From: Chrysophaeum taylorii
Taxonomy: Eukaryota > Sar > Pelagophyceae > Pelagomonadales > Pelagomonadaceae
Length of the DNA stretch: 31,624 bases
Direction of reading: 5' to 3'
Assembly: GCA_029834535.1 (NCBI GenBank)
Contig: JAQMWT010000368.1
Location: forward strand, 1 to 31,624
The notes beneath the pieces were generated by a model, which was given only the letters and a program-made list of their open reading frames with translations, was not told where the DNA came from and did no database searches. Made by a program: the position numbers and the translations under genes. Below are positions 3,664-29,059 of this stretch, in pieces (the stretch's first letter is position 1; each line of letters opens with the position of its first letter).

Positions 3664-3684
3664 TAGTTTAACGACGTTGCGGTC
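3664..3684 (-). repeat. SLN module M1 (RNase H/ORF-X joint of A), stop form
   Basis: One of nine copies of the consensus GACCGNAANGTCGTTAAACT plus A. In the RNase H frame it reads T-A-T-S-L-N followed by TAG, and lies 12 codons after the RNase H stop. The extension reads LTLVTA before it, as in element B. Confidence 0.85.
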
Positions 3685-3701
3685 ACTAGGGTTAGGCATC
3701 T

Positions 3702-5738
3702 TCAATCCTGTAAAGGCTTGTCGCCAGAGGCATGATGCATACCGAGTAGAGAACGAAAAGTGGAGAACTCAGCAGCAAGTGGCTTTGTAAAACCATCCGC
3801 CACGTTTAGCGTGCCGGGAACATGATGGACTCGAATTTTCTGTAGCGAGATGTAAACACGGATCTTAAACCATCTGGTCGACAGTGCCTTGGATCGAGAA
3901 GATCCATCTGGGTTATTAGAGGTGTGAACGGCGGCGGCATTGTCAGATAAGAGAGGTAGGCTTCTGATGAAGCGCATATCTTCAGCAATTGGGTTGTCAT
4001 TGTCATCGAAATCAACGGGATCAGCGGTGTTCTCACCATTAACATTGTTGACGTAGAATGTGGGGTTGACGACAAAGGAAAGTTCCAATAGCAGCTTGCG
4101 TAGCCAAACAGCTTCATCAGCGCAAATACTGAGGGCAATCAACTCAGCTTCGTGAGTTGAGCAGGAGATAATCGGTTGAAGCTTGCTTTTCCGGCCTATA
4201 AGGCAGTTGAAAAGATAGAAGACAAACCCGGTGGTAGATTTCCTATCTTCCTGTGCTAAGGAAGGGGCGTTGTCAGCGTCAACCTTGGCGACTAAGGGAT
4301 CAAACTGTCCAGTGGATACATCCTGCGGTTGGTAGTCGACCACAGTGGAGAGATCAATTCGATTAGCGGAGACAGTACGAAGGTGAGCTTCAATAGCATT
4401 ACCTTTAGGATGGAACCAGAGGCGAAGTGAGCGGTTTTCCGGCTTCTTGAGGTAGCGAAGCAGTTGCTCTAGCATTTGGGCGTGAACATACGTGGGTGCA
4501 TGCATACCACGCGAACATCTGCCCAAGGCTTGCGAGAAGTCAGGTCTGCAGGCCACTTGCATGAACACCAGCTTGCAAAGGAGGGTGGCAAAGTGCGAAG
4601 TGATGTACAACTCTGTTTCAGAGCTGGGAGTGCCATCTTTATACTTGAAGGACGATGACATAGGATATTTGAGCGGGGTCAGTTGCTGCAAGACAGGGTG
4701 ATCAGCGAAGAGTTCATCCAGCTTGGCGTGCACATCCAGAGAAATGGAACCGTCAGATGTGCGACACACACGCATACCTAGGAGGGTATGGACGGGTTCA
4801 AACTGCTCTACAGCATACCGTTTGTGGAGGGCATCCTGTAACTCAGTACGAAGCGTGTCATCATTGGACACAATAACAATGTCGTCTACAGACAGACTGC
4901 ATACGACGAACTTAGCATGTGCGGATACTCGAGCATATAGGCAAGAGTCAGAATGCAGGCGCTTGTAGCCAAGGCTACGGAAGAAGCCGTCTATCTCTTT
5001 GTTCCATAGAGATGGTGATTGCCGAAGTCCATAAAGTGACTTCAGCAGTTTCGGTAGGCGTCGGCCCTTGTACTTAGTGTCATCGGGGTCGATAAGCTTG
5101 ATGCCGTCTGGTAACTGAACATAGACGGTGGCATCAATGTTAGACTGAACGAAGGCGTTCGGGACGTCTGCGTGGTAGACAGGCAATTGCTTGTATGCTG
5201 CAATAGCCAGTAGTACCCGGACTGCGGTCATTGTGGCCATTGGGCTGAAAGTGCCAAAGAAATCGGCGCCAAGAGATGCTAAGAAGCCACGTAGCACGAG
5301 GCGAGCCTTGTGCTTAACGTATTTGCCTGCAGAGTCTGTTTTAATCTTCAGCACCATCCTGCTGTCAATAGGGCGAGAGACACCGTCGGGTAAGGAAAGT
5401 TTGAAGCAGCCAAAGCGGCTAATGTCGTGGAGTTCCTTGGCGATGGCCTTGAGGTAGGCGTGCCTGTTTTCAGGCGACGTACCGTGGAAGCACTTGAGTT
5501 TATATTCGTCGATGGAAACGTCCGCTTCTTGGACCATATATTCGTCAGAACCAACAGTGGCTGGTGAATTATAGTTTAACGACGTTGCGGTCGAGGCAGT
5601 GTGCGCAACTTCGGGATAAGCGGAAACAGCGTCAGTAGGAGGAGTAGAAGCAGCAGATTCCAGTTGAATATGGATAGTAGGGTCGGCATGTAAGACCTGG
5701 GTGATATACTCTGTAGAGACCAGAAGGTATTCCTCCAT
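3702..5738 (-). CDS. Reverse transcriptase-RNase H of element A
   Basis: The open frame is 678 codons with no break. RT (about residues 100-345) has the copia core: HKARLVLRGFLASLGADF, the first catalytic Asp at D191 in YHADVPNAFVQ, SLYGLRQSP, and the catalytic pair at 285-286 in SLSVDDIVIV. RNase H (about 480-660) has D487 in VDADN, DRKSTTGFVF, E530/E532 in STHEAELIAL and D599 in LLSDNAAAVH. It ends in the usual VHHVPGTLNVADGFTKPL region. The reading frame continues upstream of this ATG to an in-frame TAA at 5823-5825, so RT was originally part of a longer polyprotein. An SLN module lies at residues 51-56. All catalytic residues I can identify are present, so the enzyme could still be functional if expressed. 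Confidence 0.93.
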   Translation of the reverse strand: MEEYLLVSTEYITQVLHADPTIHIQLESAASTPPTDAVSAYPEVAHTASTATSLNYNSPATVGSDEYMVQEADVSIDEYKLKCFHGTSPENRHAYLKAIAKELHDISRFGCFKLSLPDGVSRPIDSRMVLKIKTDSAGKYVKHKARLVLRGFLASLGADFFGTFSPMATMTAVRVLLAIAAYKQLPVYHADVPNAFVQSNIDATVYVQLPDGIKLIDPDDTKYKGRRLPKLLKSLYGLRQSPSLWNKEIDGFFRSLGYKRLHSDSCLYARVSAHAKFVVCSLSVDDIVIVSNDDTLRTELQDALHKRYAVEQFEPVHTLLGMRVCRTSDGSISLDVHAKLDELFADHPVLQQLTPLKYPMSSSFKYKDGTPSSETELYITSHFATLLCKLVFMQVACRPDFSQALGRCSRGMHAPTYVHAQMLEQLLRYLKKPENRSLRLWFHPKGNAIEAHLRTVSANRIDLSTVVDYQPQDVSTGQFDPLVAKVDADNAPSLAQEDRKSTTGFVFYLFNCLIGRKSKLQPIISCSTHEAELIALSICADEAVWLRKLLLELSFVVNPTFYVNNVNGENTADPVDFDDNDNPIAEDMRFIRSLPLLSDNAAAVHTSNNPDGSSRSKALSTRWFKIRVYISLQKIRVHHVPGTLNVADGFTKPLAAEFSTFRSLLGMHHASGDKPLQD
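5572..5592 (-). repeat. SLN module M2 (integrase/RT joint of A), Tyr form
   Basis: In the RT frame it reads T-A-T-S-L-N-Y, with codons TCG TTA AAC TAT, in the linker just before the RT domain. Element B has the module at the same place (21568). Element C lacks it there. Confidence 0.85.
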
Positions 5739-6572
5739 GTCAGCCAGAGATGCAGAATTAGCGCCAAACTCGGAGGAGTTGTGATCGATAAAGCTGGTCG
5801 GCGCCAGATACGTAAGTGCATATTATAAGGAAGAAATGCCAAAGGCAGCAGCGTGCTCAGTGAACGCAGCTAAAACGGGCTGAGGAATGGGGCACGTAGG
5901 TGAGCCATCAGCAGTTAGAAAGGTTGCAGCTGGGATGCTGGATGCACACTTGGCGTGGGCGAAGTAACCATCGTCGTGCGGATAGCGGGCAAGTAAGTCA
6001 GTGCGCAACGGGAGAAGAAGACGAGCTAACAACGCATGTTCCCCCTCTGAGCAGAGAGCAGACCAGTGGATACCACCATTGATATGAAGGGCGGAGAGGG
6101 CGGGAGACTTGAACGTGAGAAAGTGGTGGCGAAGATCCCAGCGGAAATCGGCGAGTTTGCCACCAGCGGCTTTGTAAGCACCAATAGTAGACGCTTGCAG
6201 CCGGGCTTCGATATTTTTCATGGAGGTTGCCTTGCGGGTGTTAGGTTGTTTGGAACTGGGACAAGAATGAGGTCATCTTGTGCAAAAAGGTCTTTGTAAG
6301 AAGGAAGCAAGGGCGGCGGTGGCATAGAGCCAGAATCGTCGGCGAGAGCGTCGGAAGAGGGAGAAGAGGCAGAGAAGCCAGGGCGAGCCAGTACGTTGGG
6401 GGCCTTGGCAGCGACGTTGTCGGGGCAGTAGTGCACCCGGTGGAAGCGATTGGCACGTTCTTTGGCGTTGAGGTATTCGGCAGATCCGTGTGCGAAGGAC
6501 TTGCGAGGAATGGGATGAGCGGGGATATGACGTTTGCGTCGAACATCGAACTTGAGTTCGGTGTCCAAGGCA
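5739..6572 (-). pseudogene. Integrase zinc-domain remnant and pre-RT linker of A
   Basis: From about 6572 the frame reads KFDVRRKRHIP, then RANRFHRVHYC, the His-pair start of the integrase HHCC domain. Compared with element B (25191-25655), the sequence after GFSAS jumps directly to a Pro/Ser-rich linker. The C-x2-C half of the zinc site and the whole DDE catalytic core are gone, with the breakpoint near 6360. Next comes the conserved pre-RT domain (IGAYKAAGGKLADF, GIHWSALCSEGE), after a frameshift near 6222. It ends at an in-frame TAA (5823-5825) where element B has CAA, a Gln-to-stop change. A run of nine G at 6573-6581 probably caused the frameshift that separates this part from the methyltransferase. 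Confidence 0.7.
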
Positions 6573-6581
6573 GGGGGGGGG

Positions 6582-7838
6582 CGATGCGTCGTCATCCTGG
6601 TGCGCAGCAGGGTCACTTGGAGGTGCATCCTCATCATCACGAGTAGCGAGAGTATCTTCGTAGGACGAAGATATATAGTTTAACGACATTTCGGTCAAGC
6701 AGTTGCTGGAAATAGACGTCATAAAGGTTTGTGCCAAAGACAAGGTATCTGTGCTGCACGTGGTGGAGGCCTGACCAAAGGTCATAAAGTTGGATACATA
6801 GGATTTCGTCGTCACGGCAGCAGTATGTTGGAAGGTAGGGTCCAACAAAAGAGATTTAATATCGGCAACGAGGAGCGAAAGGTGCTTGTACAGTGTGCTG
6901 TACGTACCGGCAGGCAGAGCATTGCTGAGCATGTCGCAGCAAAGGTCGTGGCGAAGAGACAAGAGGAAAGATTCCTGTTGTTTGGTGTGGTTGTTAGCAC
7001 GAATCAACTCCGGTCGAGTGGGGTAGCGTAATTTCCCGTTGCGAGGGTCGAGTAAAATAATGTTGGCATACCCTCGGAAGGTGGGTAATGGAGCAAGCAT
7101 GGAGTGGATTTTAGAGCCGAGTTTGCGGTCACTTCCACGAAGATACCCTATATAGCGACTATGAGATAAGTGGTGATCTTCCAGAGCAAAATGAGAATCC
7201 TTGTAGTCGAAAGAGTTGTCGGTGGCCTTGTAGGTAAGGCAGCCAGGCATTACAAGAGAGCATCTGGACAAGAGCTTTTGTATGGCGGTGCCTTAGGTGG
7301 CAGCGGAGCCACCTTGAGGAAGGGCTTGGATTATCCACAAGTAACCCACAAACGGCTCCAAATATATAGATCTGTCCCTGTCGCGGGGGACGTTGGAGGC
7401 AGTAAACGTATACGTGCTTCCAAACGCGTCAATGGAAGCATGATATTTGGTGGCGGCGTTCTCTATGGTGAGGTTGCCGTCAGAGTGGAGGAAACCGGTT
7501 AGGAAGTAGGTATTGTGTGATGTTGATGAGGTTGTAAGTAGTAACCTATGTGACGGTTGGTCAGTTTCGAAAACGGTTATGTAATAGGACACAGGAGTGG
7601 GTGAGTTAGTGTGCAATCTGGCAAGCACGTTATAGAGGATTGTAAAAGCCTGTTGCATGAGGCAGCGGCTCCATGGAGGAGCGTTTGAAACACAGCTGAT
7701 GATAAGTACACTCGGATTGAACAGAGTGCGTGCGTTGCTCGTGAGCCTGTTGTGAGTGAAGGCGCAGCAATAACATATTGAGTGTTTCAAGGTCAGCCAT
7801 AGTAAGCTGAACAGAACCTGTGCGAGAGTAAGGTGCAA
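6582..7838 (-). pseudogene. Cytosine-C5 DNA methyltransferase, target-recognition and C-terminal part (A)
   Basis: Two open stretches in one frame (7838-7293 and 7271-6582) are separated by a TAA at 7293-7295. The second has features of C5-methyltransferase motifs IX and X: RYPTRPELI near 7028-7002, then LSNALPAGTYSTLYKHL near 6929-6879, comparable to the family's GNSVP-type motif X followed by a helix. The stretch before it would be the variable target-recognition region, with a conserved HLSHSRYIGYLRGSDRKLG segment shared with element B. After motif X comes a linker with SLN module M3. The frame differs from that of the N-terminal half (9103-7630), so one frameshift lies between 7838 and 7630. 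The motif IX/X match is weaker than motifs I-VIII; order and position support it. Confidence 0.7.
6676..6696 (-). repeat. SLN module M3 (methyltransferase/integrase joint of A), Tyr form
   Basis: It reads T-E-M-S-L-N-Y in the methyltransferase frame, between motif X and the integrase zinc domain. The matching site in element B is at 25860. Confidence 0.85.
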
Positions 7839-9103: not shown

Positions 9104-9112
9104 TGAATAACA

Positions 9113-9472
9113 CTAACTAACTAACTTCAGACCTCTCCCGAGCATGGGAGCCAGGCCGGACCGACAGGAGCCAGTCCGGAATCACGGGCCTGTAGACGAG
9201 GAGCGCCGAAAGGTCGGTCGGCGGAGAGTGACCATCAAGCTTGTCGCCATGCGACGAGGAGACCGCGATGTGACTGACAACCAACTCGTCGATAACCTTC
9301 CATCTTCGCCCCCCGGCCATGCCCCGTCCCACTGCGAACGTTCCGGCTGCCAACCGGCCCGCCCGGGAGGCGACTAGGTGCCAACCTACGCCGGGAGGGC
9401 GGATGCCCTCGCAAGGCTCAGGATTCATGAGGCACCGTCCTCCATCGCAACCGTAGTCGGCGGCGATCAGGG
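9113..9472 (-). mobile_element. SINE-like repeat S2, full length, inserted in protease
   Basis: This is a 360-bp repeat with head at 9472 and a (GTTA)n tail at 9113. It is flanked by TGAATAACA (9104-9112) and TGAATGACA (9473-9481), a 9-bp target duplication with one mismatch. It interrupts the protease frame after IYAPIVI. Related copies lie at 1685, 15045, 15980 and 16643. I could not identify clear Pol III A and B boxes, so 'SINE' rests on size, tail and duplication. Confidence 0.8.
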
Positions 9473-10305
9473 TGAATGACAATCGGCGCGTATATGGAGT
9501 CCAGTGGAATAATATGATTTGGTATTGCAAAATCGTACGTGGACATCAAGGATATGGTAGCACAAGAGTCAAAATATAAAAAGGAACAATGTTGAGGGAC
9601 ACTGTTTACCTTCATATAGTTGGTTAGGAGTGCATTTTCCGAATGCGGGCAAGTAGTGGAGAGGCTGGCAGTGAAGAAGTTCTCCAGAAATAACAAGAAA
9701 TTTGGAATGATAATCGGTTGAACAGGTGGTGATGGTTCGTCAGCCTCATCAGCCATGCCGTGCTTCTCATCAAATGACGATAGCGAAGTCTGATCGACAT
9801 CCCTTTTGGTTTCGGCTTGTGGTGGTTGGTTGATGGCAGATTGGACCTGTGAAGATAGCGAGGACAGTAACGCTGGTGGTAAAGCCGAGATGGCGGAAGC
9901 AGTAAAGAAGTTAGGCACAATATCGGAGGGATTACCCTGTGTGTTGGAGGCATCCTTGGTATCTGTAGTAGGAGGAGTTGCCTTTGGGGTGGGAGCAGTA
10001 GCAACAGTATGATGTTGTGACTCCACTTAGTTTAACGACATTTCGGTCGAGGATAGATGAACGTCTACATCATAAATGATGTCCTCTGCGAACATGAGTT
10101 GTTCGATTAGACGAAGTAAGCCACTATTGTCCTCAGTAGATGTCGTTGACAGAATGTCAGCGGATTGCAATAGAGTCTCAAATAACTTGTTGATATTCTG
10201 TTGTAGCTGAGCCGTGGTATCATTATCTGTCACATGCTTCGTAAGTTCGCTACACTGCTCTTGCAGTGTATTTAAGGTGTGCTTCGTTCGATCTAATAAT
10301 TTCAT
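9473..10305 (-). pseudogene. Coiled coil and aspartic protease active-site half (A)
   Basis: The frame opens with a helical, Leu- and Gln-rich segment (KHTLNTLQEQ, TTAQLQQNINKLFETLL), probably a coiled coil. It reaches SLN module M4, which ends in a TAA stop. The same frame continues without interruption as a Pro/Thr-rich linker and then FLYFDSCATISLMSTYDF (9570-9556 for DSCAT). This has the position and surroundings of the copia protease signature DSGAT, with Cys in place of Gly. The frame is cut by the SINE at 9472. The layout Gag-stop-protease recalls stop-codon-separated gag/pol of some retroelements. The start is unknown because Gag upstream is in another frame. Confidence 0.65.
10028..10048 (-). 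repeat. SLN module M4 (Gag/protease joint of A), stop form
   Basis: It reads T-E-M-S-L-N followed by TAA, after which the same frame stays open into the protease. Confidence 0.85.
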
Positions 10306-10343
10306 GTTAGATCGAGAGGACCTGTCAAAAGTGCGGGGGTAAA

Positions 10344-11019: not shown

Positions 11020-11026
11020 CAACTGC

Positions 11027-12240: not shown

Positions 12241-12555
12241 TGCAGAGCATTTAGCATGCAGTGGTAAGTCACCTGGGAAACCATCCCGTCTCATTTTGAA
12301 TGTCTGGAAGTATTTAATTCGGGGAATGAAAAGGTATGTTCCCTATATCCTCAGAACACGACAGGCGGCATCTAGAACTACACGAGAAAGGTAAAGTGTC
12401 TAGTGCTACGTACCTCGGGGCTCGCTAGACCATGATGATGAGCTTAAGCACAAATCAGAGGACTAATTGACTGAGTAGAAAGGAAGAAGAAGGGTAAGGA
12501 AGAGATCACGTTCTCAACGGACGGATAAGGGTAAGAGGCAGCAGATTTCTCTGCA
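12241..12555 (-). repeat. 5' LTR of element A, complete
   Basis: 315 bp with perfect 7-bp inverted ends (TGCAGAG...CTCTGCA). It is homologous to 2456-2704 and 17220-17533. The primer-binding site lies directly inside it. Confidence 0.9.
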
Positions 12556-12880: not shown

Positions 12881-12896
12881 ATTCTGAGTAAACTCT

Positions 12897-13064: not shown

Positions 13065-13450
13065 GCTTACTTAGAGCATAAGCCTCTTTTCGCTTCGTTC
13101 CCAAACGCTCGTATTCAAGCTCCGCAAGCTCTAACTTCCATGTGGCAGTTATATATGTACCAGCTTCATCTGGTCTTGTTTGCTAGGCACAACCCACCGA
13201 CTTTTTTTTGAAGTCAGGGGTTCTACCAGCAGGGGAGCTTCAGCTCCGGTTTCGACAAGCCTGGACGCTGTAAACGCTGAATCGCTGATTGTCCCGCGGG
13301 CTGCGCCTGCTTCTTGTGCCCGTGCCCCTCTCGCGTGCGAAATCTGGTCGCGCTACTGCGCGAAGCCTGCCTTGTACTGATGGAAGCTTAATTTTTATAA
13401 CTATGGTTTGCAACTCCCAGACTCAGAGAGCCAGGATGGGAAGATCGCTC

Positions 13451-13542
<92 letters not shown>

Positions 13543-14221
13543 AAGAAAGAAAGAAAAGGCCGCAGTCGACCGCAGAGGACGGCAAAGGAGAAGGCAAGAA
13601 AGCCAAACAAGACGGGGGGATTCAGGGAGAGACAGAAACGCAGAGAGAAGCGGGGTGATAAAAGGAAAATGAGTGCATGGCGTGAATAGGCGCAAAAAGA
13701 GGTGCAGAACGTAGGGGGTGGTAGAAGATATCCGAGAGGGAAAGTGTGCTTTGGACTTGGTGTTGAGAAATTGCTTGGGACTTAGCTTAGAGGAAAGTGC
13801 CGCCACAACCGCCGTTGTCGCCGCTAACACCCGGGATACGTAATAATTGTAGCGTAAAAAGGAGACGACTTCTCCGGATCAGCCTTTTGTCCCATGTTTC
13901 ATTCGCCACTTAAGGACGAACTGTCACAGTAATTAGCTTAGATCCGACAACCGGGCCTAAGCCGGCCGCAAGAATCCAACCGAATCAAAACGAGACTGCC
14001 GCTTTTCCTTTCCCGGGTTAGACTATGTTTTTTTGCGGCATGATTTCCGCGTGATGGATCACGTTTCGCTTATGTAGCAGCCTCGAACCGAAGCACCAAG
14101 CGGCAATCAAGTCGCATGGGGGTAGCCAAGATCTGTTGAGGATCTTGGGATCGGGTGAAGTTTGAATCCTAGTCCCAAAGGTCGCGTCGAGGTGTAAGGT
14201 GTCCAAAACACAAACAAAAGC
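13065..14221. other. Non-coding stretch upstream of the LHC pseudogene
   Basis: No supported gene. It contains one copy of the short repeat (13403-13438, minus), the GA microsatellite, then purine-rich DNA to about 13830. The last ~110 bases resemble the leader of LHC copy 1, so the LHC duplication included at least the 5' UTR. Confidence 0.45.
13447..13558. repeat. GA microsatellite
   Basis: About 110 bases of almost pure (GA)n passing into (GAAA)n at its right end. The Arg/Glu and Leu/Ser open frames across it are artefacts. Confidence 0.95.
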
Positions 14222-14836
14222 ATGTTCTTCTCCGGGGTCGTCGTCGCGCTCTGCCTCACCTCGGCTGTGGCCTTTGCCCCCGTGGCCACCCACGCAACAC
14301 CCAAGACCGTCGTCAAGGCCTTCGAGACCGAGCTCGGCGTCCAGCCTCCGCTCGGCTTCTTCGACCTCCTCGGCCTCCTCGCGGACGCCGACCAGGAGAA
14401 ATTCGAGCGCCTTCGCTACGTTGAGATCAAGCACGGCCGCATCTCGATGCTTGCCGTCCTCGGCTAGATCGTGACCAAGGCGGGGATCTTCCTCCCGCGC
14501 ACCATCGACTACTCGGGCACCAAGTTCTCCGATGTCCCCACAGGCTTCGGCGCCTTCTCCGCGATCCAACCGGCCGGCATCGCCCAGATCGTCGCCTTCG
14601 TCGGCTTCCTCGAACTTTTCGTGATGAAGGACTCGGCCAACGGCGCCGCTCCCGGCGAGTTTCCGGGCGACTTCCGCAACGGCGCTCTTGACTTCGGCTG
14701 GGACTCGTTCTCGGCAGAGGAGAAGCTGAGCAAACGTGCGATAGAACTGGACAACGGCCGCGCTGCCATGATGGGCATGCTCGCGCTCATGGTCCACGAG
14801 GAGCTCGGTGTCTCCCTCTGGCCGGGCTGTATCTAA
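14222..14836 (+). pseudogene. Fucoxanthin chlorophyll a/c-binding protein, copy 2, with in-frame stop
   Basis: A second LHC gene, colinear with copy 1 over its whole length. It has the SAVAFAP targeting motif, the three helices and the chlorophyll-ligand motifs VEIKHGRISM and ELDNGRAAMMG. Codon 82 is TAG (14465-14467) where copy 1 has CAG, so translation would stop just after helix 1; a new Met follows at 14471. Other changes include FDPLG to FDLLG, PGT to PRT and ELNN to ELDN. The third helix keeps its Asn-Gly-Arg. The rest of the frame is clean, so inactivation looks recent. A sequencing error, or rescue by readthrough or RNA editing, cannot be excluded. Confidence 0.85.
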
Positions 14837-18207: not shown

Positions 18208-19677
18208 TCAGTTCTCCATGTCGCTTATGGTAGTGACAGCTCTGCGCAAGTCAGACCGTATGGTAGCATTTTCGGTTGTCAGTGCATGAAAACGTCGGTT
18301 AAGTTGTTCGTGTGATATCTGGAGCGTCTCGGCCTGTTGATTGAGCCGAGTTACTTCGGAAGATTAAGCTTCAAGATCCGGGGAAGAAGTAACGATAGCT
18401 TGTGCAGTCGCTGGTGTTGGTGCCGGGGCAGTAGATGCCGTTGGCGGGTAAATTAACGAGGTTTCGGTCGTAGCGGTAAGTTCAGCATAGAGCTGAGGAT
18501 ATCTCGACGATAACAAGTTAGCAAAGTCTTTACGGTCGGTGTCGGAGAATGTAGATGGTGACAATATCTCATCAAAGATCGATGGTGGATTCTCTTCGTC
18601 ATCGAGGGAGTTATAGTCGGCAATATGTTGAACGAGGAAGCGACTTAATGTCTGCACTAAAGGCTTGTAGGCACTGGCCTTGATGATCGACTGTTTCTTC
18701 GCATGTGTGCGTACAACCGTGACAATAACCGACAAAAGCTCCAAGTGAAGTCGAGAGATGTACTTTAGGTTGAAGGGATAAGCCACTTGATGTGACTCAG
18801 TGGATAGCGTAGATGGCACAATGATATCTTCGGGCAGATTGTATTCTTTTCCTATTTCTTGCAGCAGTGCGTGTAGATCCGAAGGTAGAAAGTAAACACG
18901 AAGGATGGTAGCCCGGAGGTGACCAGCAGGAGATGATTCACAAGAAAAAGCAACAAGACGTGCATTCCATGCAAAGAAAAGAAATTAAACAAGAACGTGA
19001 TCGGACTTTCGACACGCACAGCACATGGACATGGTAGGAACTGATACGGGTATGAACGCGCTTTTACAATGTGTCTCACTGGCGAGAAGTTCCAAGACAT
19101 CGGCAGGAAGTTCATCCATTTTCTTCTTATAGGAAGATACACAAATCTGAATCGGTTTGCCATCTTTGTCAAAACATTGGAGACAATGAAAAGCAACAAG
19201 CTGAGTCTCCTTTTTAGGACCACGGTAGCACAAAGTAGCATGTACTGCTGGTGCAGTCGACAGGGGAAAGACGACAGGTGTCCGGATAGACAAGTAGTTC
19301 CCTAGTTCCATGACGCCTTGGAAGTCCAGGTGATCGCGCGTAGCATAGAGGGCATCAATAGCGCGCGTTAGATCTGAGTGCAAGAACGAAGAAAGAAGGT
19401 TAGTGAACACAGGCCTATATTTTGCATCAGAAAGAACAGATGAGCCTTGTTCATGTTGGGTGGTATTGAAAATCGCAGCATCTGCAAAAGTATTTGGTGA
19501 GCTCGCGTCGGCACGTATCGCAGCGGCGGAAGTAGAGTGCAAACGCGTAACGTCATCGCGAGTCGGCTTCCTGCGGCTCGGGGGAGTGTTGGCAGAAGAC
19601 TCCGCGGGAGTAAGGGTTCGCGGCAGTTTGCGGCGGGCGGGCGTGACGCCGCGTGGGAAGCTTCGCCAGTGATGCAT
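18208..19677 (-). pseudogene. ORF-X of element B (double CxxC, coiled coil), two stops
   Basis: One reading frame of 490 codons from the ATG at 19677 to a TGA at 18208, interrupted by TAA at 18985 and TAA at 18364. The N-terminus is basic and Ser/Thr/Pro-rich. Conserved CYRGPK, then HCLQCFDKDGK and, about 50 residues on, CCACRKSD form the two CxxC pairs shared with A and C. A helical middle (LRATILRVYFLPSDLHALL) follows. Near the end is SLN module M5 (TETSLIYP), a Pro/Ala/Thr linker, then a coiled coil (LNQQAETLQISHEQLNRRF) to the terminus. Length and layout match the intact C copy. The function is unknown; zinc binding plus a coiled coil suggests nucleic-acid binding and oligomerisation. Confidence 0.65.
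18449..18469 (-). repeat. SLN module M5 (inside ORF-X of B), Tyr form
   Basis: The most diverged in-frame copy, reading T-E-T-S-L-I-Y, before a Pro/Ala/Thr linker. TCG and TTA codons are retained. Confidence 0.65.
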
Positions 19678-19739: not shown

Positions 19740-19753
19740 ACCAGGGTTAGCGA

Positions 19754-21668
19754 TTAGGTCTCATCTTGGTCTGAACCAGTAGCATGATGCATACCTAGAA
19801 GAGAGCGAAACGTAGCAAAGTCGGCTGCAAGAGGCTTTGTAAATCCGTCAGCTACATTTAACTTGCCTGGGACGTGGTGAACACGAATCTTCTGTAGTGC
19901 AATATATTCGCGAATTTTGAACCATCGTGTAGAGAGGGTTTTGCTGCGAGAAGAACCGTCAGGATTATTGGAAGTGTGCACGGCGGCAGCATTGTCAGAC
20001 AAAAGAGGTAGGCTCTGATGAAGCGCATGTCCTCGGCAATAGGGTTGTTGTCAGCGTCAAAATCGGATGGAGGGTCAGCTTGCGTGTTCATGTAGAATGT
20101 CGGAGTAACCACAAACGAGAGTTCGAGGAGTAGTTTACGGAGCCAGACTGCTTCGTCAGCGCAGATGCTAAGGGCGACAAGCTCAGCTTCGTGGGTAGAG
20201 CACGATAGAATAGGTTGTAATTTACTTTTCCATGTAATGCGGCAGTTGAACAAGTAGAAGACAAAACCCGTAGTGGACTTCCTGTCTTCCTGTTCCAGTG
20301 AAGGGCATTGTCAGCATCCACCATGGTAACGAGGGGATCGAACTTGCCGGTGTTGATATCTGTAGCCTGATAATCGACTATTGTCGATAAGTCAACTCGA
20401 TTGGCGGATATAATGCGTAGGTGAGTTTCAAGAGCATTTCCTTTAGGGTGGAACCAGAGGCGAAGAGCTCGATTGGCGGGTTTAATAAGGTACCTTATGA
20501 GGTGACAGAGCATCTGGACGTGCACATAGGTAGGTGAGTGCACACCTCGGGAACAGCGTCATAGAGCTTGGGTGAAATCTGGGCGGCAAGCAACTTGCAT
20601 GAACACTAACTTGCCAAGTAACGTAGCGAAGTGGTCATGAATATAGATTTCCACGTCAGTGGAAGGAGAGCCTTCTTTGTACGTGAATGTTGACGACATA
20701 GGGTATTTAAGCGGGGTAAGGGATTTTAATATGGGATGGTCGTCGAATAACGCGTCTAGCTTGGCTTGAACGTAAAGGGATATAGATCCATCCGGCGTTC
20801 GGCAGACACGCATTCCCAGAAGAGTATGGACTGGCTCGAACTGTTCCACAGAGGAGCGCTTATGCAGTGCTTCTTGGAGCTCAGTGCGTAGTGTTTCGTC
20901 GTTCGACACTATAGCAATGTCGTCCACAGGTAGGAGACAAGTATCCGCGTGGAGTCGCTTGTATCCAAGACTCCGAAAGAAGCTGTTGATCTCTTTGTTC
21001 CAGAGAGAAGGAGATTGTCTGAGTCCATAGAGAGACTTCAGCACCTTGGGCAAACGGTGGCCACGGTGTTTGGCGTCTTGAGGATCGAGTAACTTGATGC
21101 CGTCAGGGAGCTGTACGTAGACGTGCGCATCGATATCAGATTGGACGAACGCGCTGGGCACGTCACTGTGGTACACGGGCAGGTTCTTGTATGCAGCAAT
21201 AGCTAAAATGACACGTATAACGGTCATCGTTGCCATGGGACTAAACGTCCCAATGAAATCGGCGCCAAGTGAAGCTAGGAAGCCACGCATGACTAACCGA
21301 GCCTTGTGCTTGATATACTCCCCGGAGGAGTTGGTCTTGATCTTGAGTACCAGGCGACTGTCAATTGGACGAGTCGAAGCATCAGGTAGAGCTAGCTTGA
21401 AGCAACCGAAGCGCACTATATCGTGCAACTCCTTTGCGATCGCCTTGATATAAGCTTGTCTGTATTCGGAAGAAAGTCCTTGTAGACACATGAGCTTATA
21501 CTCGTCGATAGATACGTCGGCTTCTTGGACTTTGTATTCGTCCGGGCCTGCGGTGGCCGGAGAGCCATAGTTTAACGACTTTTCGGTCGAAGCAGAGTAA
21601 AGAACTTCAGGATAGGCGTGAGTGGCACAGGTGCATGGAGTGGAGGTATCAGGTTCCAACTCCACCAC
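19754..21668 (-). pseudogene. Reverse transcriptase-RNase H of element B, degraded
   Basis: Closely similar to the RT-RNase H of A. RT is open from 21668 to a TGA at 20559-20561 (Q-A-L-stop-R-C-S-R-G). It keeps YHSDVPSAFVQ and VDDIAIVSND, but has an in-frame deletion at about 20930: A's CLYARVSAHAKFVVCSLSVDD corresponds to CLLPVDD in B. About 14 residues next to the catalytic pair are lost. RNase H is split over three frames by frameshifts near 20300 and 20010, but keeps STHEAELVAL, SDNAAAVHTS and the HHVPGKLNVADGFTKPL end. The frame continues upstream past a TAG at 21693-21695 where A has CAG. Confidence 0.85.
21568..21588 (-). repeat. SLN module M7 (integrase/RT joint of B), Tyr form
   Basis: Reads T-E-K-S-L-N-Y-G, at the same place as M2 in element A. 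Confidence 0.85.
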
Positions 21669-21692
21669 CAGGAGAGGTTCCTTATGAAGTAC

Positions 21693-22620: not shown

Positions 22621-22660
22621 CTTTACTACTAATTGGCAGATGTTTGTCTGTCTGTTTGTT

Positions 22661-22924
22661 TGTCTTTAAAGGTCGACTGCTAAGAGGGGTGTGTGTGTGT
22701 GGCGGAACGAAGGATGTGTGTGGTTTTGTGGGGTAGGAGGGATGTGCCTGACGGGCGTAGATAGGTATGCGGGACCTAGTCGGGGTCATGTTTGTCTTTA
22801 AAGGTCGACTGCTAAGAGGGGTGTGTGTGTCTGGTGCATGAAGGATGTGTGAGGTTGTGTGGGGTAGGAGGGATGTATGTGCCTGATGGGCGTAGATAGG
22901 TATGCGGGACCTAGTCTGGGTCAT
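22661..22924 (-). repeat. Tandem duplication of the LINE 3' UTR
   Basis: Two units with a period of about 132 bases, each with TTTAAAGGTCGACTGCTAAG, GGGATGTGCCTGA-type and GATAGGTATGCGGGACCTAG words. The ORF stop (22911-22913) lies within the right-hand unit, so the last codons and the UTR are duplicated together. Confidence 0.85.
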
Positions 22925-25190
22925 CGCCGAGTCGTGGGGCAGGCGAAGAGAGGACGGGCCCCGCCCGTAGGTCGTACGCATGCTGCCGCCGGACGTATTT
23001 GCGACGAAGGGTGACGTCCTGCTGGGGTCGGGCGGCCTGGGTGGGGCTCCCCGAGGCGGCGACATGGGTGAGGGCACAGCGAGCCCGGCCCAATGCGTTG
23101 GCGATCCCCCACTCACGGTAGATGCGGCGAGTTTGGGCCGCCTTTGCTACTGTGAAATTGGCGCGGCCGCTTGCCACCCAGGTTCGCGCAGCGATGCGCT
23201 CTGCGCATGTTTGGGCGAGGGCGTGGCACGCCGCGCTGGCCTCACCGATGGCACCAAAGACGAGGCCGGCGACGGTGCCGTAGCTACGTAGCCGCTGTTC
23301 GACAGGACCCAAGAAGCCAGGCGGTGGTGCTGTACCCGGCTGGGGGATGATGGCGTCGATGCCGCGGGCGTGAGCGAGGTATTCGGAGTGGACTTGCGCT
23401 GCGCGCCGATCGACAGGCAACGGGTGGGAGGGATGGAGGGCGTGGGCGGTGTATAACGAACCCCAAGCGAGGGTTTTGAGGTCGTAGAGTTGCTCCTTGT
23501 TGTCGAGCGTGGTGTGGATGTCTGGGACGACTTGGCGTCGGGCGAGATTGCCTCGGTACCGGCCGTAGAGGCGCGTGCGAATGGTAGGGGCGACGACGTC
23601 AGCAAAGATGCCGAAAACCTCGGACACGGCGGGGATGCCGGCCTCTTTGACGATGCAGAGGACGCACTCGAGCAGGCCGTCGTGCCAGGTGGTCCGCGCT
23701 CCTACGCGACAAGGTTGGCCTGCGAGCACCTTGCCGTGAGCGTCGAGAACGACGTTAGTGCCCAGAATGCGAGGCCCACGAGGCCCGAACAAGCTGGAGA
23801 GGGGTAGCCAAAGTACTGGGCACACATCTCGGCCCAGCAGCGGTTGGGGATTTGAAGGGAGGAGCTGGTGGGCCACGAGCTGATGAACGTGGTCGAGAAG
23901 CGATCCCATGAGGACGCCGCTACTTGAAGTGCATCGGTGATGGGAAGGGTGGCCGCAAGGCGCTGGAGTGCAGTGGCCCGAGCTGTCTCGCGCTGGGAGG
24001 TTAGAGCACGCTGGAGTTGGGGTATGAGCACGGGTGTCGAGACGGTGGGGTCGACGAGGACGCCCATGGAGACGAATTCGTGGGAGAGTGGACCGTCGAC
24101 GAGATGAACGTTGGCGGGGTCGCCGGAACCAGCGCCACCGTGGGAAGCCTGCGTGGTACGGAGATCAGCCCGAAGTCCGTCCCACGCAGTCTCGAGTGCT
24201 CGCCCCAGGCGGCAACCGGATGCGAGGAGGTGGTGCCAACGGTGCAACTCGTTACCTGTGCGAAAAGAAGTGGCACCCAGGATCGAGGCGAGGCGGTGGA
24301 GGTAGCCAGGGACCTCCACGGTACCCGTAGGATCGCGAAGGTCGACGAGGTGTGGGAGGGCCTGGGCCGCCATGCCAACAAAGGCGGCGGGGCTGAGGTC
24401 GGCGCAGGAGCGAATGCCGCCACCCCCACTTCGAGCAGGAAGGCGGAGGCGTTGGAGGACGATGCCGGTGGAGTCAAAAACCTGACGCGGATCAGCGCCA
24501 AGTGCTGTGGCGACGAAGCTGAGGACGGCAACGTCGAAGCGGCGGAGCGCGCTCAAGGCATTGGTGGGGTAGCAGTGTTGCGCGAGGTAGTCCAAGCGCA
24601 GGGCGATGCCGTAGCGGCCCAACGAGTACATGCAGTGGAGGGAGACGTTCTGGAGCTTGGTGCGAATGGTGCTCATGTAGCTCACCTGAGCGTCAACCTC
24701 GCGTTGCAAGGTAGCTTCGACATAGGCATCTCCGGCGTGTCCGGGGGAGCCGATGGGCACACCGTAGATTACGAGGCCGTCGGCGACAACGGGGATACCC
24801 GCAAGAGTGCGCGTGCCGTCCTGCGCAACTAGGACGTGGACTTGAACATCGGGGTGATCGAGAAGACCCATGCCAAGTGCCGGACAGAACGCCACGCACT
24901 TGTCGAGGCGGAGCTCCTCGCCGCTAGCTTGGATGTCGCGGGCGTACTGCAGGAGGGCGTCGACAACCTCACGAGGGGAACCAGAGATGACGCCGCCGTC
25001 CATGCCAAATCGTGCGTAGCCGGCACATGAACGTAAGCGGGTGTCAAGGGTCTGTGCGGCGTCATGCGTTGCCTGACAGTACGCCGGTGGATAGGTGGGG
25101 TCGCCTTGCTGGCCGCCTTCTTGAGAGTCGAAGGGGGCGCGGCGCGATCGAGGCCGGTGGGGCCATGGAGGGCCACCCAGGATGCTCGAC
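22911..25190 (-). pseudogene. LINE polyprotein: RT C-terminus and restriction-like endonuclease
   Basis: Two frames join by a frameshift near 23780. The first (to 23702) starts inside RT at EGGQQGDP, then FGMDGGVISG where an MDD/ADD catalytic box is expected, so the second Asp is replaced by Gly. It continues with RLDKCVAFCP and the algal-type RLP-GGGGIRS region. The second (from about 23780) has DGLLECVL, FADVV and RQVVPD followed 13 residues later by DLK. That is the PD-X(12-14)-D spacing of restriction-like endonucleases of R2/NeSL/Utopia-type elements. A conserved RRAAQVHSEYLAHARG-like stretch and a basic C-terminus end it. The 5' truncation and the changed catalytic Asp mean no activity. 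Confidence 0.75.
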
Positions 25191-25655
25191 CCTGTAGGGA
25201 GTGGTGATGTGTTGGCTGAAGCACGGCCGGAACGCGTCGGAGTATACTGTGCGTAAATGCACATTGAGTTGGGTCTTGCAGAAAGCATGCAGGTAATCGA
25301 GTGCTTGCGTGAACTCGGTCGCGTTGGTGGTGCGAGTAAAATAGGCTAGTAGGAACTTCGATAGTAGTTCTTTGAAGACAATAATGTGGGTGAAGCCGCC
25401 CCATTCAGAAGGTACGGTTACGTAGCCACCATCGCAAGCCCAGACTTCACCGGGCCGGTGGGTCTGTTCAAAATTGGGCTTGGTCTCGTTCTCTTGGTCG
25501 TGACGGTGGCGTTCGTTGTGGCAAATGCAGTCTATGCACATATCCCTGTAGGGAATATCCGATGCTGAAAAGCCAGGACGAGCAATGACGTCAGGGGCTT
25601 TGGCAGCAACGTTATCAGGGCAATGGTGCACATTGTGGAAGCGATTGGCTCTTGT
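25191..25655 (-). pseudogene. Integrase of element B, truncated by the LINE
   Basis: The integrase zinc domain is complete here: FHNVHHC, then about 30 residues later C-I-D-C, giving H-x3-H-x(~30)-C-x2-C. The catalytic core starts with GEVWACDGGYVTV (first Asp, residue 67 counted from 25631). It runs through HIIVFKELLSKFLLAYF to LRTVYSD (second Asp, 132) and is cut at ITTPYR before the catalytic Glu. It is joined to the methyltransferase frame upstream by a one-base deletion near 25650 (compare the intact stretch in A at 6440-6470). Confidence 0.8.
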
Positions 25656-26578
25656 TTGACATTTAGGTATTCAACAGTGCCATGGGCGAGCGTTTTTCGG
25701 GGAATTGCCTTGACAGGGATATGTCGCTTCCTACGAACGTTGAATTTGAGCTCCGTGGGTACATCTAAGGAGGGAGCGTCACTGTCGTCGTTGGAGTCAC
25801 CATCCGCAGCAGCTGTGCTTGTAGAGAGTGCTTCTTCAGGTGGAGTTCCTGAAGAGCGGTAGTTTAACGACTTTTCGGTCCAGCTACGGTTGGAAATGTA
25901 AGTCATGAATGCATCTGCCCGAGAGATAGTGTCTGAACTGTGACTGGAAAGAGATAGTTCACGAGTTAGGAAGGTAGACACATAGGTCTTCTTCAAAGTG
26001 GCAATATCGTGTTGAAAGGAAGGGTCCAACATAAGGGACTTCATATCGACGACTATACGGCAGATGTGTATGTACAGAGTATGGTAAGTGCCTGCAGGCA
26101 AGGCATTAATGAGAAGGTCGCAGCATAAATCTTTCTTCAGTGCAAGTAAGAAGGCTGCCTGGGAACGGGTATGATTATTGGATCTGGTAAGCTCAGAGCG
26201 AGTAGGGTAACGGAGTTTGTTATTTCGAGGGTCCAGCAAGATCATATTTGCATATCCACGTATGGTAGGCAGTGGAGCTAGCATGGAATGGATTTTGGAT
26301 CCAAGCTTGCGGTCGCTGCCGCGTAAGTAGCCAATATATCGGGCATGAGAGAGATGGTAATCTTCCAGGGCAAAGTATCTGTCTTGGTAATAGAGTCGAC
26401 CGGAGGGTTGGTTATAAACAACACAGTTGGGCATGACAAGTGGAGAGATTCGACCCTCTCCGGGTACATAGTAGAGACTGCGTGCAGTCTTAGGCGTGTA
26501 CAGACCATTCCGCTTGTCACATGCTACTACACAAGGTAGGGATTTAAGCCCTAACTCCTTAAGGACATTAGGTCCCAT
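25656..26578 (-). pseudogene. C5-methyltransferase C-terminal part of element B
   Basis: An open frame of about 300 codons homologous to 7271-6582 of A: HLSHARYIGYLRGSDRKLG, RYPTRSELTRSNNH (motif IX position) and LINALPAGTYHTLY (motif X position). Then a linker carries SLN module M8 and KFNVRRKRHIP. Upstream residues (VLKELGLKSLPCVVACDKRN, SLYYVPGEGR) are not present in A but occur in the E fragment. The catalytic half with motifs I-VIII is absent: the element is cut off near 26880. Calling it a methyltransferase depends on the comparison with A. Confidence 0.62.
25860..25880 (-). repeat. SLN module M8 (methyltransferase/integrase joint of B), Tyr form
   Basis: Reads T-E-K-S-L-N-Y-R (TAC for Tyr), at the same place as M3 in A. 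Confidence 0.85.
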
Positions 26579-26954
26579 AGAAGCGTTTACACTGACAACG
26601 AGGAACGAAGCCTCTGTTAATTAAACAGAACACCCCGTACCTGACGGTACGCACCTGGAGGCCTACTCCATGTTGGAAAAGAGCTTCGGACTGGGTTCTT
26701 CATAGTCATGAAAATACATAATTGCGGAAGGGTAAGGAAGGAAGGAGGGAAAGCCGTATTACGGAGAGAAAACCCTCTTGTAGAGATAGGTGTGAAATGT
26801 TCCAGTGTCGCATACAATAATAGTGTAGCTCTCTGGACCCCCTCAACGTGTGAAAATGGCTTATGCATTTCAGACGCTCTTGAGGCGGAACTTGTGCAAT
26901 ATACATGAGAACAGTGAACAATGGAACAAACAACAACTGAACAGGACAAATTAA
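26579..26954. other. Junction of elements B and C
   Basis: The first part (to about 26800) is shared with element E at 12556-12880 and belongs to B upstream of the methyltransferase ORF. From about 26880 the sequence is AT-rich and probably belongs to C. No LTR of C is recognisable (no TGCAGAG end), so the B-C boundary is undefined. Confidence 0.4.
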
Positions 26955-27458
26955 TTATGATGTCGAGCGTGTTGTGATGTTGCGCAAAGAAGCAGTATCG
27001 GTATCCACAACATCAGATGTGTGGTCCAATTCATCCTCGCTATTATCGTCCAGTTCCTTTAACTCTGGAGAAGACGAATTATGATCATCGGAGGATAGGT
27101 CGTTAGCAGTGTTGGTATTGTGCGTAGTCATTGCATCACTCAAGGTGACCAAGGGTGATATGACAGACGAAAGGAAAGACATAGCAGCATCTGGTGTAAG
27201 AGCGTGTAGATCCAATGCAGGAATAGCACGATCATGTGCATCAGACATAGCTGTGTGGAGGTGATGAGCTGCTGCATCGATTTGAACTCGCTGTGCCTCA
27301 TTATACGTATCTGGAGGGAGCTGTCCAATAGACGAGATAAGCGATCGAGAAATGATATGGACAAATACAGCAGACGTCGGTATTATGGTGTTCTGATGCA
27401 TTTGAAGACTTGACAAAATGTTATCTAGTAAAGAAACATGTTTAATGTTCTCGGTCAC
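26955..27458 (-). CDS. ORF-Y of element C, unknown acidic protein
   Basis: A 167-codon frame, helical at first (SLLDNILSSLQMHQN, AQRVQIDAAAHHLH), with a strongly acidic Ser/Asp/Glu-rich C-terminal third. It overlaps the end of ORF-X by four bases in the -1 frame. The only initiator at the overlap is GTG, so in a eukaryote it would be reached by reinitiation, -1 frameshifting or a later Met. I recognise no domain; B has a positional counterpart. Confidence 0.5.
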   Translation of the reverse strand: MTENIKHVSLLDNILSSLQMHQNTIIPTSAVFVHIISRSLISSIGQLPPDTYNEAQRVQIDAAAHHLHTAMSDAHDRAIPALDLHALTPDAAMSFLSSVISPLVTLSDAMTTHNTNTANDLSSDDHNSSSPELKELDDNSEDELDHTSDVVDTDTASLRNITTRSTS

Positions 27459-28963
27459 TTAAGTATTAAGGGTTCGTTGTTTTCTTGCAATTGTGTGAGA
27501 GACGTTAGAGCAAGCGATAGTTGATGTTCTCGTGCCATCAATTGCTGTTCAGTGTTAGTGAGACGTAGGGATAAGGACTGAATCTCTTCTTTTAATTGGT
27601 GTAAGGATGCAGCCATATTGTCGTTAGCTTTATCTGGCGTGAGCTCAGCGGGTGGATTATCGATCGGCGCTGGTGACACATCTTCAGAAGGGGTATTATT
27701 AAAGGTATCAATGATATGGGATGGGTAGCCAACTTGGATTAACACGTTTTTAAATGCTAATTGTTGATCAGGTGGAAGTTGGCGAAAGTAGTGCAACATT
27801 GGCGGTACCGTCTCGGAAGAAGTTGCATCCAGTTGATGAGAAACATCGTTAACAAAGCGTTCGATGAGCACGTTAAGTAAATCCTCAGGATTGGTAACTA
27901 CACAGGTCTTATCTTCAACAGATTGTAACAAAGACCAAGCTGCTGCAAGAATTTCAAGATTTACATTCGAAATGAAGGGCAACTGAAGTAAGAGCATGGC
28001 GTTAGCGTCAGGGTTGACAATGATTTTAGAGGCATCAACGTTAAGGGATGTTGCAGCCTGCATGATTGCCTCTTTGAGCAGCTTATTAATAGCAATGGAC
28101 TTTCCAAGGCGGAGGATTATAGCTCTTGTGTGGGCAGCTGGATCCTTAAAACAAGAGAGTTGGAAGGGTTGCTGATTGTTGCGAATTAAAGCTATCCCAT
28201 GATTCGACAAGTTGCACATCACACAAAGCAACAAAAAGAAAGGGCGCGGTATATCAAGGCAGTGCGATGCATGTTGCTCAGACGCGAGATGATCCTCAAT
28301 AATTTGGCGAATCCTGTCAGTTTTAAGCTCATCTTCAGTACAGATGATGAGCACGAGGGGTGTGCCCGGCATCTCAGTTTTATTGTAACACTTTGTACAC
28401 GCCACATGTACTTTGACATCCCCTTTAATGGGTGGAAAGCGGTGAAATCGAATACCCTCATTAGGAGATATAGCGGGGGCATTCCGAATGCGCTTTGCTT
28501 TGACGCACAGCAATGAACTAAGATATTGGATGTCGTCCACAAAGTCTGTCTGTTGTGCTTCGGTAAGCAGCTGCTGCACAGACTTAAGCCAACACTGAGG
28601 ATTATTATGTTGGGGGATGACGAAATTCGGCGGGGATCCACCAAGGGCGGCTATATTCCCTGACATCATCGCAAGTGCGTCAAATTTGCAATGTTTAAGC
28701 AGGAAATACTCAGACTTAAATGGTTGCGATTTAGACGGTTGTTGGACATTTGTCTTGGGTGCCTTAGGCGTAACGGGCGTAGATTGATGTCCTTGAGCCA
28801 CCGACAAATAGGTTTGATGCTTCCGATTAGGGGAACTAGTCGGTGCAACGCTTGGAGTTAGAGCGTTAAAAGGTGGGGATAGTGACAGTGCACCACCACG
28901 ACCACGGTTTAGGGTAGAGTGGCGTCGGCTCGCAGCATCTTTGTTTTTAGTGGGATTCACCAT
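27455..28963 (-). CDS. ORF-X of element C, intact
   Basis: From the ATG at 28963 the frame is open for 502 codons (it is open back to 29002 without another ATG). The N-terminal ~80 residues are basic and Ser/Pro/Thr-rich (RRHSTLNRGRGG). Two CxxC pairs lie at about 189-192 (ACTKC) and 247-250 (LCVMC). The middle is hydrophobic/helical. The last ~70 residues form a predicted coiled coil (LHQLKEEIQSLSLRL, TEQQLMAREHQL). It matches ORF-X of B in length, order and cysteine pattern. That it stays open while the adjacent RT has several frameshifts is notable. The function is unknown. No protease, integrase, RT or clear membrane segment is seen. Confidence 0.75.
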   Translation of the reverse strand: MVNPTKNKDAASRRHSTLNRGRGGALSLSPPFNALTPSVAPTSSPNRKHQTYLSVAQGHQSTPVTPKAPKTNVQQPSKSQPFKSEYFLLKHCKFDALAMMSGNIAALGGSPPNFVIPQHNNPQCWLKSVQQLLTEAQQTDFVDDIQYLSSLLCVKAKRIRNAPAISPNEGIRFHRFPPIKGDVKVHVACTKCYNKTEMPGTPLVLIICTEDELKTDRIRQIIEDHLASEQHASHCLDIPRPFFLLLCVMCNLSNHGIALIRNNQQPFQLSCFKDPAAHTRAIILRLGKSIAINKLLKEAIMQAATSLNVDASKIIVNPDANAMLLLQLPFISNVNLEILAAAWSLLQSVEDKTCVVTNPEDLLNVLIERFVNDVSHQLDATSSETVPPMLHYFRQLPPDQQLAFKNVLIQVGYPSHIIDTFNNTPSEDVSPAPIDNPPAELTPDKANDNMAASLHQLKEEIQSLSLRLTNTEQQLMAREHQLSLALTSLTQLQENNEPLILK

Positions 28964-29038
28964 GAGACGGATCTCCACATCACACCTGTTATTGCATTTC
29001 ACATTCTAGCGAGCCAGTATTCCTTTACATAGCAGGGT

Positions 29039-29059
29039 TAGTTTAAGGTCATTTCGGAC
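29039..29059 (-). repeat. SLN module M9 (RNase H/ORF-X joint of C), stop form
   Basis: In the RNase H frame, after two stops: S-E-M-T-L-N then TAA. The hairpin arms are GTC/GAC instead of GAC/GTC, so the middle base pair is swapped. Confidence 0.75.

What the first reader, a model, noticed from the sequence alone, without database searches (positions are those of the whole stretch)
3664..29059. A 21-nt in-frame module marks nearly every polyprotein joint in these copia elements
Nine copies of GACCGNAANGTCGTTAAACT(A) occur on the coding strand: 3664, 5572, 6676, 10028, 18449, 19719, 21568, 25860, 29039. All nine are in the local reading frame and encode T/S-(E/A)-x-S/T-L-N/I followed by Tyr or stop. 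They sit at domain joints: Gag/protease (TAA), methyltransferase/integrase (TAT, TAC), integrase/RT (TAT, TAT), RNase H/ORF-X (TAG, TAG, TAA) and near the ORF-X end (TAC). TTA is used for Leu in all nine, and TCG and AAC in eight, although neighbouring codons drift freely. Selection therefore seems to act on the nucleotides as well as the peptide. I know of no described retroelement with a repeated module that alternates Tyr and stop at successive joints.
Basis: partly seen in the sequence, partly recalled or inferred. Interest (0 to 1): 0.92.

Follow-up and report, generated by a model that had tools for sequence, protein, structure and literature searches.

The report
Coremin-like RNA motif in algal retrotransposons
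Jumping genes of a marine alga carry, at the joints between their protein parts, the same tiny RNA shape that some plant viruses use to stop the cell's RNA-shredding enzyme, which suggests that these elements may control the decay of their RNA piece by piece.

Summary
The 21-nt module is real: 7 exact copies and 2 with three mismatches, all on the minus strand. The window is from the pelagophyte Chrysophaeum taylorii; its genome holds 1,766 copies at up to 2 mismatches (control 1). The module matches the hairpin plus spacer of the coremin Xrn1-resistant RNA of plant viruses, hexaloop form. It constrains nucleotides beyond the peptide: between two copia families synonymous codons agree at about 40% of shared residues but at 12 of 12 fixed module codons. 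The stem covaries: A-U and U-A occur, tested mismatches are rare or absent. 'Tyr or stop' is the free base after CUA. The RNase H/ORF-X copies lie after the pol stop, outside any ORF. A second retroelement type carries it twice. It also sits, mostly noncoding, upstream of bacterial and phage genes. Best reading: a ladder of 5'->3' exonuclease stops at domain boundaries. No activity was measured. Against: 559 of 1,094 exact copies end the loop in C, inactive in one published context; a clear downstream hairpin was found in 10 of 16 contexts.

The parts
10028..10048 (-). module m1, family A, Gag/protease joint; loop CGAAAU; TAA in this copy, TAC in 9 of 9 other family A copies printed
6676..6696 (-). 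module m2, family A, upstream of integrase; loop CGAAAU
6654..6672 (-). downstream hairpin (hp2) of m2 family A, -7.1 kcal/mol when folded alone
5572..5592 (-). module m3, family A, integrase/RT joint; loop CGCAAC
3664..3684 (-). module m4, family A, noncoding, after the pol stop and before ORF-X; loop CGCAAC
25860..25880 (-). module m2, family B; loop CGAAAA
25830..25857 (-). downstream hairpin (hp2) of m2 family B, -12.1 kcal/mol
   Evidence: cluster 1
21568..21588 (-). module m3, family B, integrase/RT joint; loop CGAAAA
19719..19739 (-). module m4, family B, noncoding, after the pol stop; loop CGCAAU
18449..18469 (-). module m5, family B, inside ORF-X; decayed (3 mismatches, stem broken)
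29039..29059 (-). module m4, family C, noncoding; compensatory stem GTC/GAC, loop CGAAAU; one further change at position 13
3705..5822 (-). RT-RNase H ORF, family A (Pfam RVT_2)
20562..21692 (-). RT ORF, family B (RVT_2)
29089..30561 (-). RT-RNase H ORF, family C (RVT_2)
25065..25670 (-). integrase core (rve, below the curated cut-off), family B
27458..29005 (-). ORF-X, family C (no Pfam match), starts just after m4
2456..2705 (-). LTR copy flanking element A (3' side)
   Evidence: 95.6% identical to 12241-12490
12241..12490 (-). LTR copy flanking element A (5' side)

Best explanation
The module is the conserved part (hairpin hp1 with hexaloop CGNAAN, then spacer UUAAACUA) of a coremin-type exoribonuclease-resistant RNA. 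Copia elements, and a second retroelement type, of the alga carry it; in copia it sits at the 5' edge of each protein domain (before protease, before integrase, before RT-RNase H, before ORF-X, and inside ORF-X). In the published coremin system Xrn1, moving 5'->3', halts one nucleotide before hp1. Here that would leave 5'-trimmed RNAs that start at domain boundaries. Shown: sequence match with coremin, nucleotide-level and stem-pair constraint, placement at joints, Xrn-family genes in the host. [quoted passage not shown]
For: Published coremin is GUCCGAAGACGUUAAACUAC, hexaloop variant YGNNAD. 6 of 9 window copies carry loops CGAAAU, CGAAAA or CGCAAU, reported Xrn1-resistant in the BNYVV context. 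Over 77 distinct contexts, which were collected by matching the motif with up to 3 substitutions, the variable sites are loop positions 6 and 9, both second codon positions, while third positions are near-invariant. Joints found by flanking peptide alone, in the window and twenty 10-kb loci that had been chosen for holding modules, have the module at 9 of 9 m1 (all exact), 10 of 10 m3 (6 exact, the rest 1-2 off) and 8 of 12 m2 peptide hits; the 4 m2 hits without it are loose matches that I take for chance. Families A and B: 12 of 12 fixed module codons identical over three joints against 39-41% elsewhere. Stem pair 2 in the host genome: flipped pair 28, mismatched 4 and 1. The base before GACC, which the search left open, is C or T (pairs with G13) in 71 of 77 contexts. 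A noncoding copy (m4) is kept in three families. Downstream hairpins beat controls overall, combined p 0.005 and 0.001. Three XRN_N matches over the cut-off in the host.
Against: 559 of 1,094 exact genomic copies end the loop in C, and loop CGAAAC was not Xrn1-resistant in the BNYVV context, although some natural viral motifs and 22 of 166 bacterial and phage contexts also end in C. hp2 reaches -3 kcal/mol in only 10 of 16 contexts; it is weaker in two and absent in four, these six including m4 of families B and C and m5 of family A, and only 2 of 16 contexts alone pass p 0.05 against random sites. In 60 sampled bacterial/phage contexts it is no commoner than in shuffles. The flipped-stem copies in the alga are mostly one sequence (25 of 28 have loop CGAAAU), so they may be one event. 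Inside family A the m4 sample chosen without the module shows only a modest contrast: 0.978 against 0.949 upstream and 0.902 downstream. No Rfam family matched. No RNA or enzyme data exist here.
Confidence: 0.68

Rival explanations
1. The same RNA structure is used against ribosomes, not exonucleases: it slows translation at domain joints so that each domain folds or is processed, and before ORF-X it holds scanning ribosomes.
For: xrRNA_C stalls scanning ribosomes in vitro, and hexaloops CGAAAA and CGAAAU do so more than wild type. Most copies sit inside ORFs at domain joints.
Against: m4 lies after the pol stop, where no elongating pol ribosome passes. The paper tested scanning, not elongation. 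CGAAAC lost most stalling, yet C-ended loops are about half of the exact copies.
Confidence: 0.17
2. The module is a repeated protease cleavage site; the peptide T-x-x-S-L-N-Y is what is selected, and the shared codons are incidental.
For: Copies sit at joints of a polyprotein, and the in-ORF copies printed use the same one of the two open frames. The peptide has a general likeness to known retroviral cleavage sites (recalled, from no call).
Against: Amino acids vary (A/E; T/M/K) while third codon positions do not. Synonymous sites are conserved against the element's own codon usage (TTA 13% of Leu, TCG 11% of Ser). m4 is noncoding. A motif scan of the 120 listed RT relatives found no such peptide, which is weak evidence because many do not cover the joint.
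Confidence: 0.06
3. No function: a 21-nt sequence was copied recently between joints and families by template switching or gene conversion.
For: Young element families with many near-identical copies; module shared across unrelated contexts.
Against: Match with an independently known RNA motif; compensatory stem change; the same joints keep it between families whose synonymous sites have drifted to about 40% agreement; reversed-pattern control 1 against 1,766.
Confidence: 0.04
4. A DNA-level site or small-RNA target: recombinase or transcription-factor site, or the target of a 21-nt host small RNA.
For: Length 21 nt; high copy number.
Against: Stem covariation and loop rules point to folded RNA. 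The motif precedes genes in bacteria and phages that share no such machinery with the alga.
Confidence: 0.04

Closest known systems
[quoted passage not shown]
   Same: hp1 with C-G closing pair, loop YGNNA(D), spacer UUAAACUA, and often a following hairpin of free sequence; some viral copies also lie in coding sequence or span a stop codon
   Different: Here in DNA-encoded retroelements of an alga, about five per full-length copia element at domain joints, in frame with a polyprotein, with many C-ended loops and sometimes no clear hp2
Flaviviral xrRNAs (PMC5760640: passages on RNase J1 seen)
   Same: Proposed outcome: a folded RNA that stops 5'->3' exonucleases, including bacterial RNase J1, and leaves 5'-trimmed RNAs
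   Different: Unrelated sequence; larger ring-like fold with pseudoknots; 3' UTR location
Ty1/copia LTR retrotransposons
   Same: RVT_2 reverse transcriptase, LTR pairs, weak integrase match before RT
   Different: RNA motif at joints; extra ORF-X downstream of RNase H; extra stretch of unclear identity before integrase

Membership tests
coremin xrRNA (xrRNA_C) | 4-bp hp1 with C-G closing pair | tested here: met
   outer pair Y-G in 71 of 77 alga contexts, a base the search left open; pair 2 occurs as A-U or U-A, tested mismatches rare or absent. The inner pairs were part of the search pattern
coremin xrRNA (xrRNA_C) | hexaloop YGNNAD | tested here: inconclusive
   loop position 5 other than A only 2 stretches in IMG/VR against 31; last base A/G/T in 535, C in 559 of 1,094 exact copies
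coremin xrRNA (xrRNA_C) | spacer UUAAACUA(C) | tested here: met
   kept at joints found by flanking peptide alone: 9 of 9 m1 and 10 of 10 m3 within 2 mismatches of the module; the following base is free
coremin xrRNA (xrRNA_C) | second hairpin directly downstream | tested here: inconclusive
   -3 kcal/mol or better in 10 of 16 contexts, combined p 0.005 and 0.001; not enriched in 60 sampled bacterial/phage contexts
coremin xrRNA (xrRNA_C) | halts Xrn1 in vitro | not testable with these tools
   needs the degradation assay
Ty1/copia LTR retrotransposon | RVT_2 reverse transcriptase | tested here: met
   three ORFs, E 4e-43, 3.9e-33, 1.3e-21
Ty1/copia LTR retrotransposon | paired long terminal repeats | tested here: met
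   window 2456-2705/12241-12490; C9:99403-99722/110591-110903
Ty1/copia LTR retrotransposon | integrase upstream of RT | tested here: inconclusive
   rve matches below the curated cut-off (E 1e-4, 7e-3) between m2 and m3
retroviral-type protease cleavage site | constraint on the peptide with drifting synonymous sites | tested here: not met
   fixed synonymous codons at three joints, variation at second codon positions, noncoding copies

The most novel reading that the evidence does not exclude
Retrotransposons encode a ladder of exonuclease-stop RNAs inside their own polyprotein gene and so turn host 5'->3' decay into a processing step that yields RNAs starting at each domain. The same 21-nt RNA is a stop used across life: against Xrn in eukaryotes and, upstream of dnaK, adhesin and phage scaffold genes, against RNase J in bacteria.
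Probability: 0.38. Interest if true: 0.93.

Novelty: new variant of a known kind. Interest (0 to 1): 0.8.

Why it matters
Coremin was described in RNA viruses. Finding it in a eukaryotic genome in about a thousand exact copies, dual-coded within ORFs and placed at domain joints, would give exonuclease-resistant RNA a role in retroelement gene expression. The bacterial and phage occurrences make the idea testable in laboratory strains that have RNase J. Among the titles and abstract openings listed I saw none on a coremin or xrRNA in a retroelement or in bacterial mRNA. Most of those lists were capped (for example 40 of 68, 30 of 77, 40 of 85, 20 of 7,956) and the library holds open-licence PubMed Central papers without bioRxiv, so prior reports elsewhere are possible.

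Tried and rejected
Rfam: no family reached its gathering score in the window; 14 of the 31 viral loci, searched whole, gave only tRNAs. So the identification rests on the literature hit and the rule tests. Considered and dropped as recalled resemblances with no supporting call: hammerhead or pistol ribozyme, riboswitch, -1 frameshift signal, group I intron core, tRNA primer site, rRNA complement. The peptide in distant copia relatives: a motif scan of the 120 listed RT relatives found none, but in the 17 closest the joint could be recognised by my pattern in few, so this is weak. An attempt to broaden the phage set by scaffold-protein similarity returned only 6 close relatives. Tetraloop coremin in this genome: 4 copies. 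G or C at both sides of stem pair 2: none in the genome, 2 stretches in IMG/VR, so A-U/U-A is favoured. An earlier count said 11 of 16 contexts have hp2 at -3 kcal/mol or better; the table gives 10. In one search one of 17 clusters (number 16) was left out because it repeats cluster 1, and one member stood for each cluster. The 77 contexts and 166 contexts were collected by the motif itself, so conservation inside the pattern is partly built in; searches are the less circular tests.
Full report
Observation. A scan for GACCGNAANGTCGTTAAACT with up to three mismatches finds nine sites, all on the minus strand, against 0.03 expected. Seven are exact; 18450 and 29040 differ at three positions. The sites fall into three copia families on the minus strand: A (m1 10029, m2 6677, m3 5573, m4 3665), B (m2 25861, m3 21569, m4 19720, m5 18450) and C (m4 29040). 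RVT_2 matches mark the RT ORFs and an LTR pair flanks element A. The three copies between RNase H and ORF-X lie after the pol stop codon, so they are not translated with pol.

Host and copy number. The best hits of the light-harvesting protein encoded at 691-1302 are Chrysophaeum taylorii proteins (94-98% identity), and one listed C. taylorii protein lies on a contig of 31,624 bases, the window's length; it is a pelagophyte. The 70.8-Mb assembly has 877 + 889 hits at up to two mismatches and 1 hit of the reversed control. A full-length element at about C9:99403-110903 carries five modules (101322, 104322, 106490, 108397, 109681), i.e. before protease, before integrase, before RT, after the pol stop, and inside ORF-X (domain names follow the Pfam matches and, for protease, the eye). 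A second element type, with a 2,207-aa frame matching RVT_1 (E 5e-12) and weakly a C5 DNA methylase (below its cut-off), carries two copies 87 nt apart near its N-terminal end.

Nucleotides, not peptide alone. Over 77 distinct 141-nt contexts, collected by the motif with up to 3 substitutions, the fixed positions have entropy 0 to 0.34 bit, flanks about 1.4 to 2.0 apart from one column (0.93), and the two variable module positions (6 and 9) are both second codon positions; third positions are almost invariant. TTA is 13% of Leu codons and TCG 11% of Ser codons in the copia ORFs counted. In family A against B, the same codon is used at 39%, 41% and 40% of identical residues around m3, m2 and m1; at the fixed module codons ACC, TCG, TTA, AAC it is 12 of 12. 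To lessen the circularity I looked for joints by flanking peptide alone in the window and twenty 10-kb loci (which had been chosen for holding modules): m1 9 of 9 exact; m3 10 of 10 within 2 mismatches, 6 exact; m2 12 peptide hits, 8 with the module (7 exact) and 4 loose hits without, which look like chance matches. In 40 of the 150 copies listed by an RNase H tail search, plus-strand matches picked by hand from the upper and lower part of the list, the noncoding m4 is exact in 32, one mismatch off in 6, and not found within 4 substitutions in 2; module sites are 0.978 conserved against 0.949 upstream and 0.902 downstream. That within-family contrast is modest.

What it is. 31 viral stretches and 32 bacterial or archaeal contigs hold the exact pattern; the reversed pattern has 1 in the viral set. 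There it is mostly noncoding (a sense frame of 150 codons or more runs across it in 18 of 166 contexts) and often shortly upstream of a gene: a DnaK start within 320 nt in 13 of the 32 contigs, adhesin-like genes, phage scaffold-like genes; contigs also come from Mycoplasmataceae, Helicobacter, Paceibacterota, Planktothrix and Methanobrevibacter (gene names from the translations, by eye). A text search for GUUAAACUA led to the coremin Xrn1-resistant RNA: GUCCGAAGACGUUAAACUAC, with a hexaloop variant YGNNAD followed by a spacer and a free second hairpin. The module is that motif with stem GAC/GTC.

Rule tests. The published rule says loop position 4 is free and position 5 must be A: in IMG/VR position 4 other than A gives 26 stretches, position 5 other than A gives 2, against 31 with A at both. 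In the alga the flipped pair occurs 28 times, the two mismatched forms 4 times and once; window copy 29040 has the flipped pair. G at the last loop base, which would close a GNRA tetraloop, is 2 of 166 in the prokaryote and phage set and 0 of 77 in the alga. The outer pair is Y-G in 71 of 77 and the base is Y in 150 of 166.

Results against. 559 exact copies end the loop in C and 535 in A, G or T; CGAAAC failed in the BNYVV context. The second hairpin is convincing at m2 of both families, where unrelated sequences fold in nearly the same place (-12.1 and -7.1 kcal/mol), but only 10 of 16 contexts reach -3 kcal/mol, four have none, and 2 of 16 alone pass p 0.05 against random sites. In 60 of the 166 prokaryote and phage contexts it is not enriched (16 of 60 against 30 of 120 shuffles). 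No Rfam family matched.

Mechanism. The host has three Xrn-family matches over the cut-off. A flaviviral xrRNA blocks Xrn1, Dxo1 and bacterial RNase J1, so a mechanical block working in both kingdoms is plausible. I favour a ladder of decay stops at domain boundaries, because it is the one use that covers in-frame joints, the noncoding copy before ORF-X and the noncoding bacterial copies. Ribosome pausing at joints uses the same fold and remains the main rival. 'Tyr or stop' follows from the free base after CUA. That the in-ORF copies printed use one of the two open frames may reflect descent by duplication or an added role of the peptide; I did not resolve this.

Judgement. Identity with the coremin hairpin and spacer I hold at about 0.9; exonuclease stopping in this alga at about 0.68, since nothing was assayed here.

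Noticed in passing
L103-L134 (bacterial/archaeal contigs) and L051-L081, L141-L166, L169-L288 (viral contigs): The coremin hairpin and spacer occur mostly noncoding: a DnaK start lies within 320 nt downstream in 13 of 32 contigs, others precede adhesin-like and phage scaffold-like genes. By a crude ORF rule 117 of 166 distinct contexts have a putative start codon within 100 nt downstream, without a control. One Helicobacter and one Paceibacterota contig hold two copies each.
   Followed up: partly
L038:2-6622 (minus), also L039, L046, L050: Second retroelement type: 2,207-aa open frame with RVT_1 and a weak C5 DNA methylase match, with two coremin modules 87 nt apart (in L050 the second copy is damaged).
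   Followed up: partly
   Followed up: no
window 23702-25345 (minus): A long ORF with a QQGDP stretch, like a non-LTR reverse transcriptase, sits between m2 and m3 of family B and probably marks a nested insertion; by eye only.
   Followed up: no
window 671-1304 and 14199-14835: Two copies of a light-harvesting (chlorophyll-binding) gene, 92% identical.
   Followed up: no
window 10028: The TAA in the Gag/protease module is private to this copy within family A; 9 of 9 others printed have TAC, so element A here is a damaged copy.
   Followed up: yes
G000 C27, C24, C402: Three XRN_N matches in the host, one more than the Xrn1/Xrn2 pair I would expect from memory.
   Followed up: no
window 13423-13672: Simple repeat that reads as an RE repeat on the plus strand and an SL repeat on the minus strand.
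   Followed up: no
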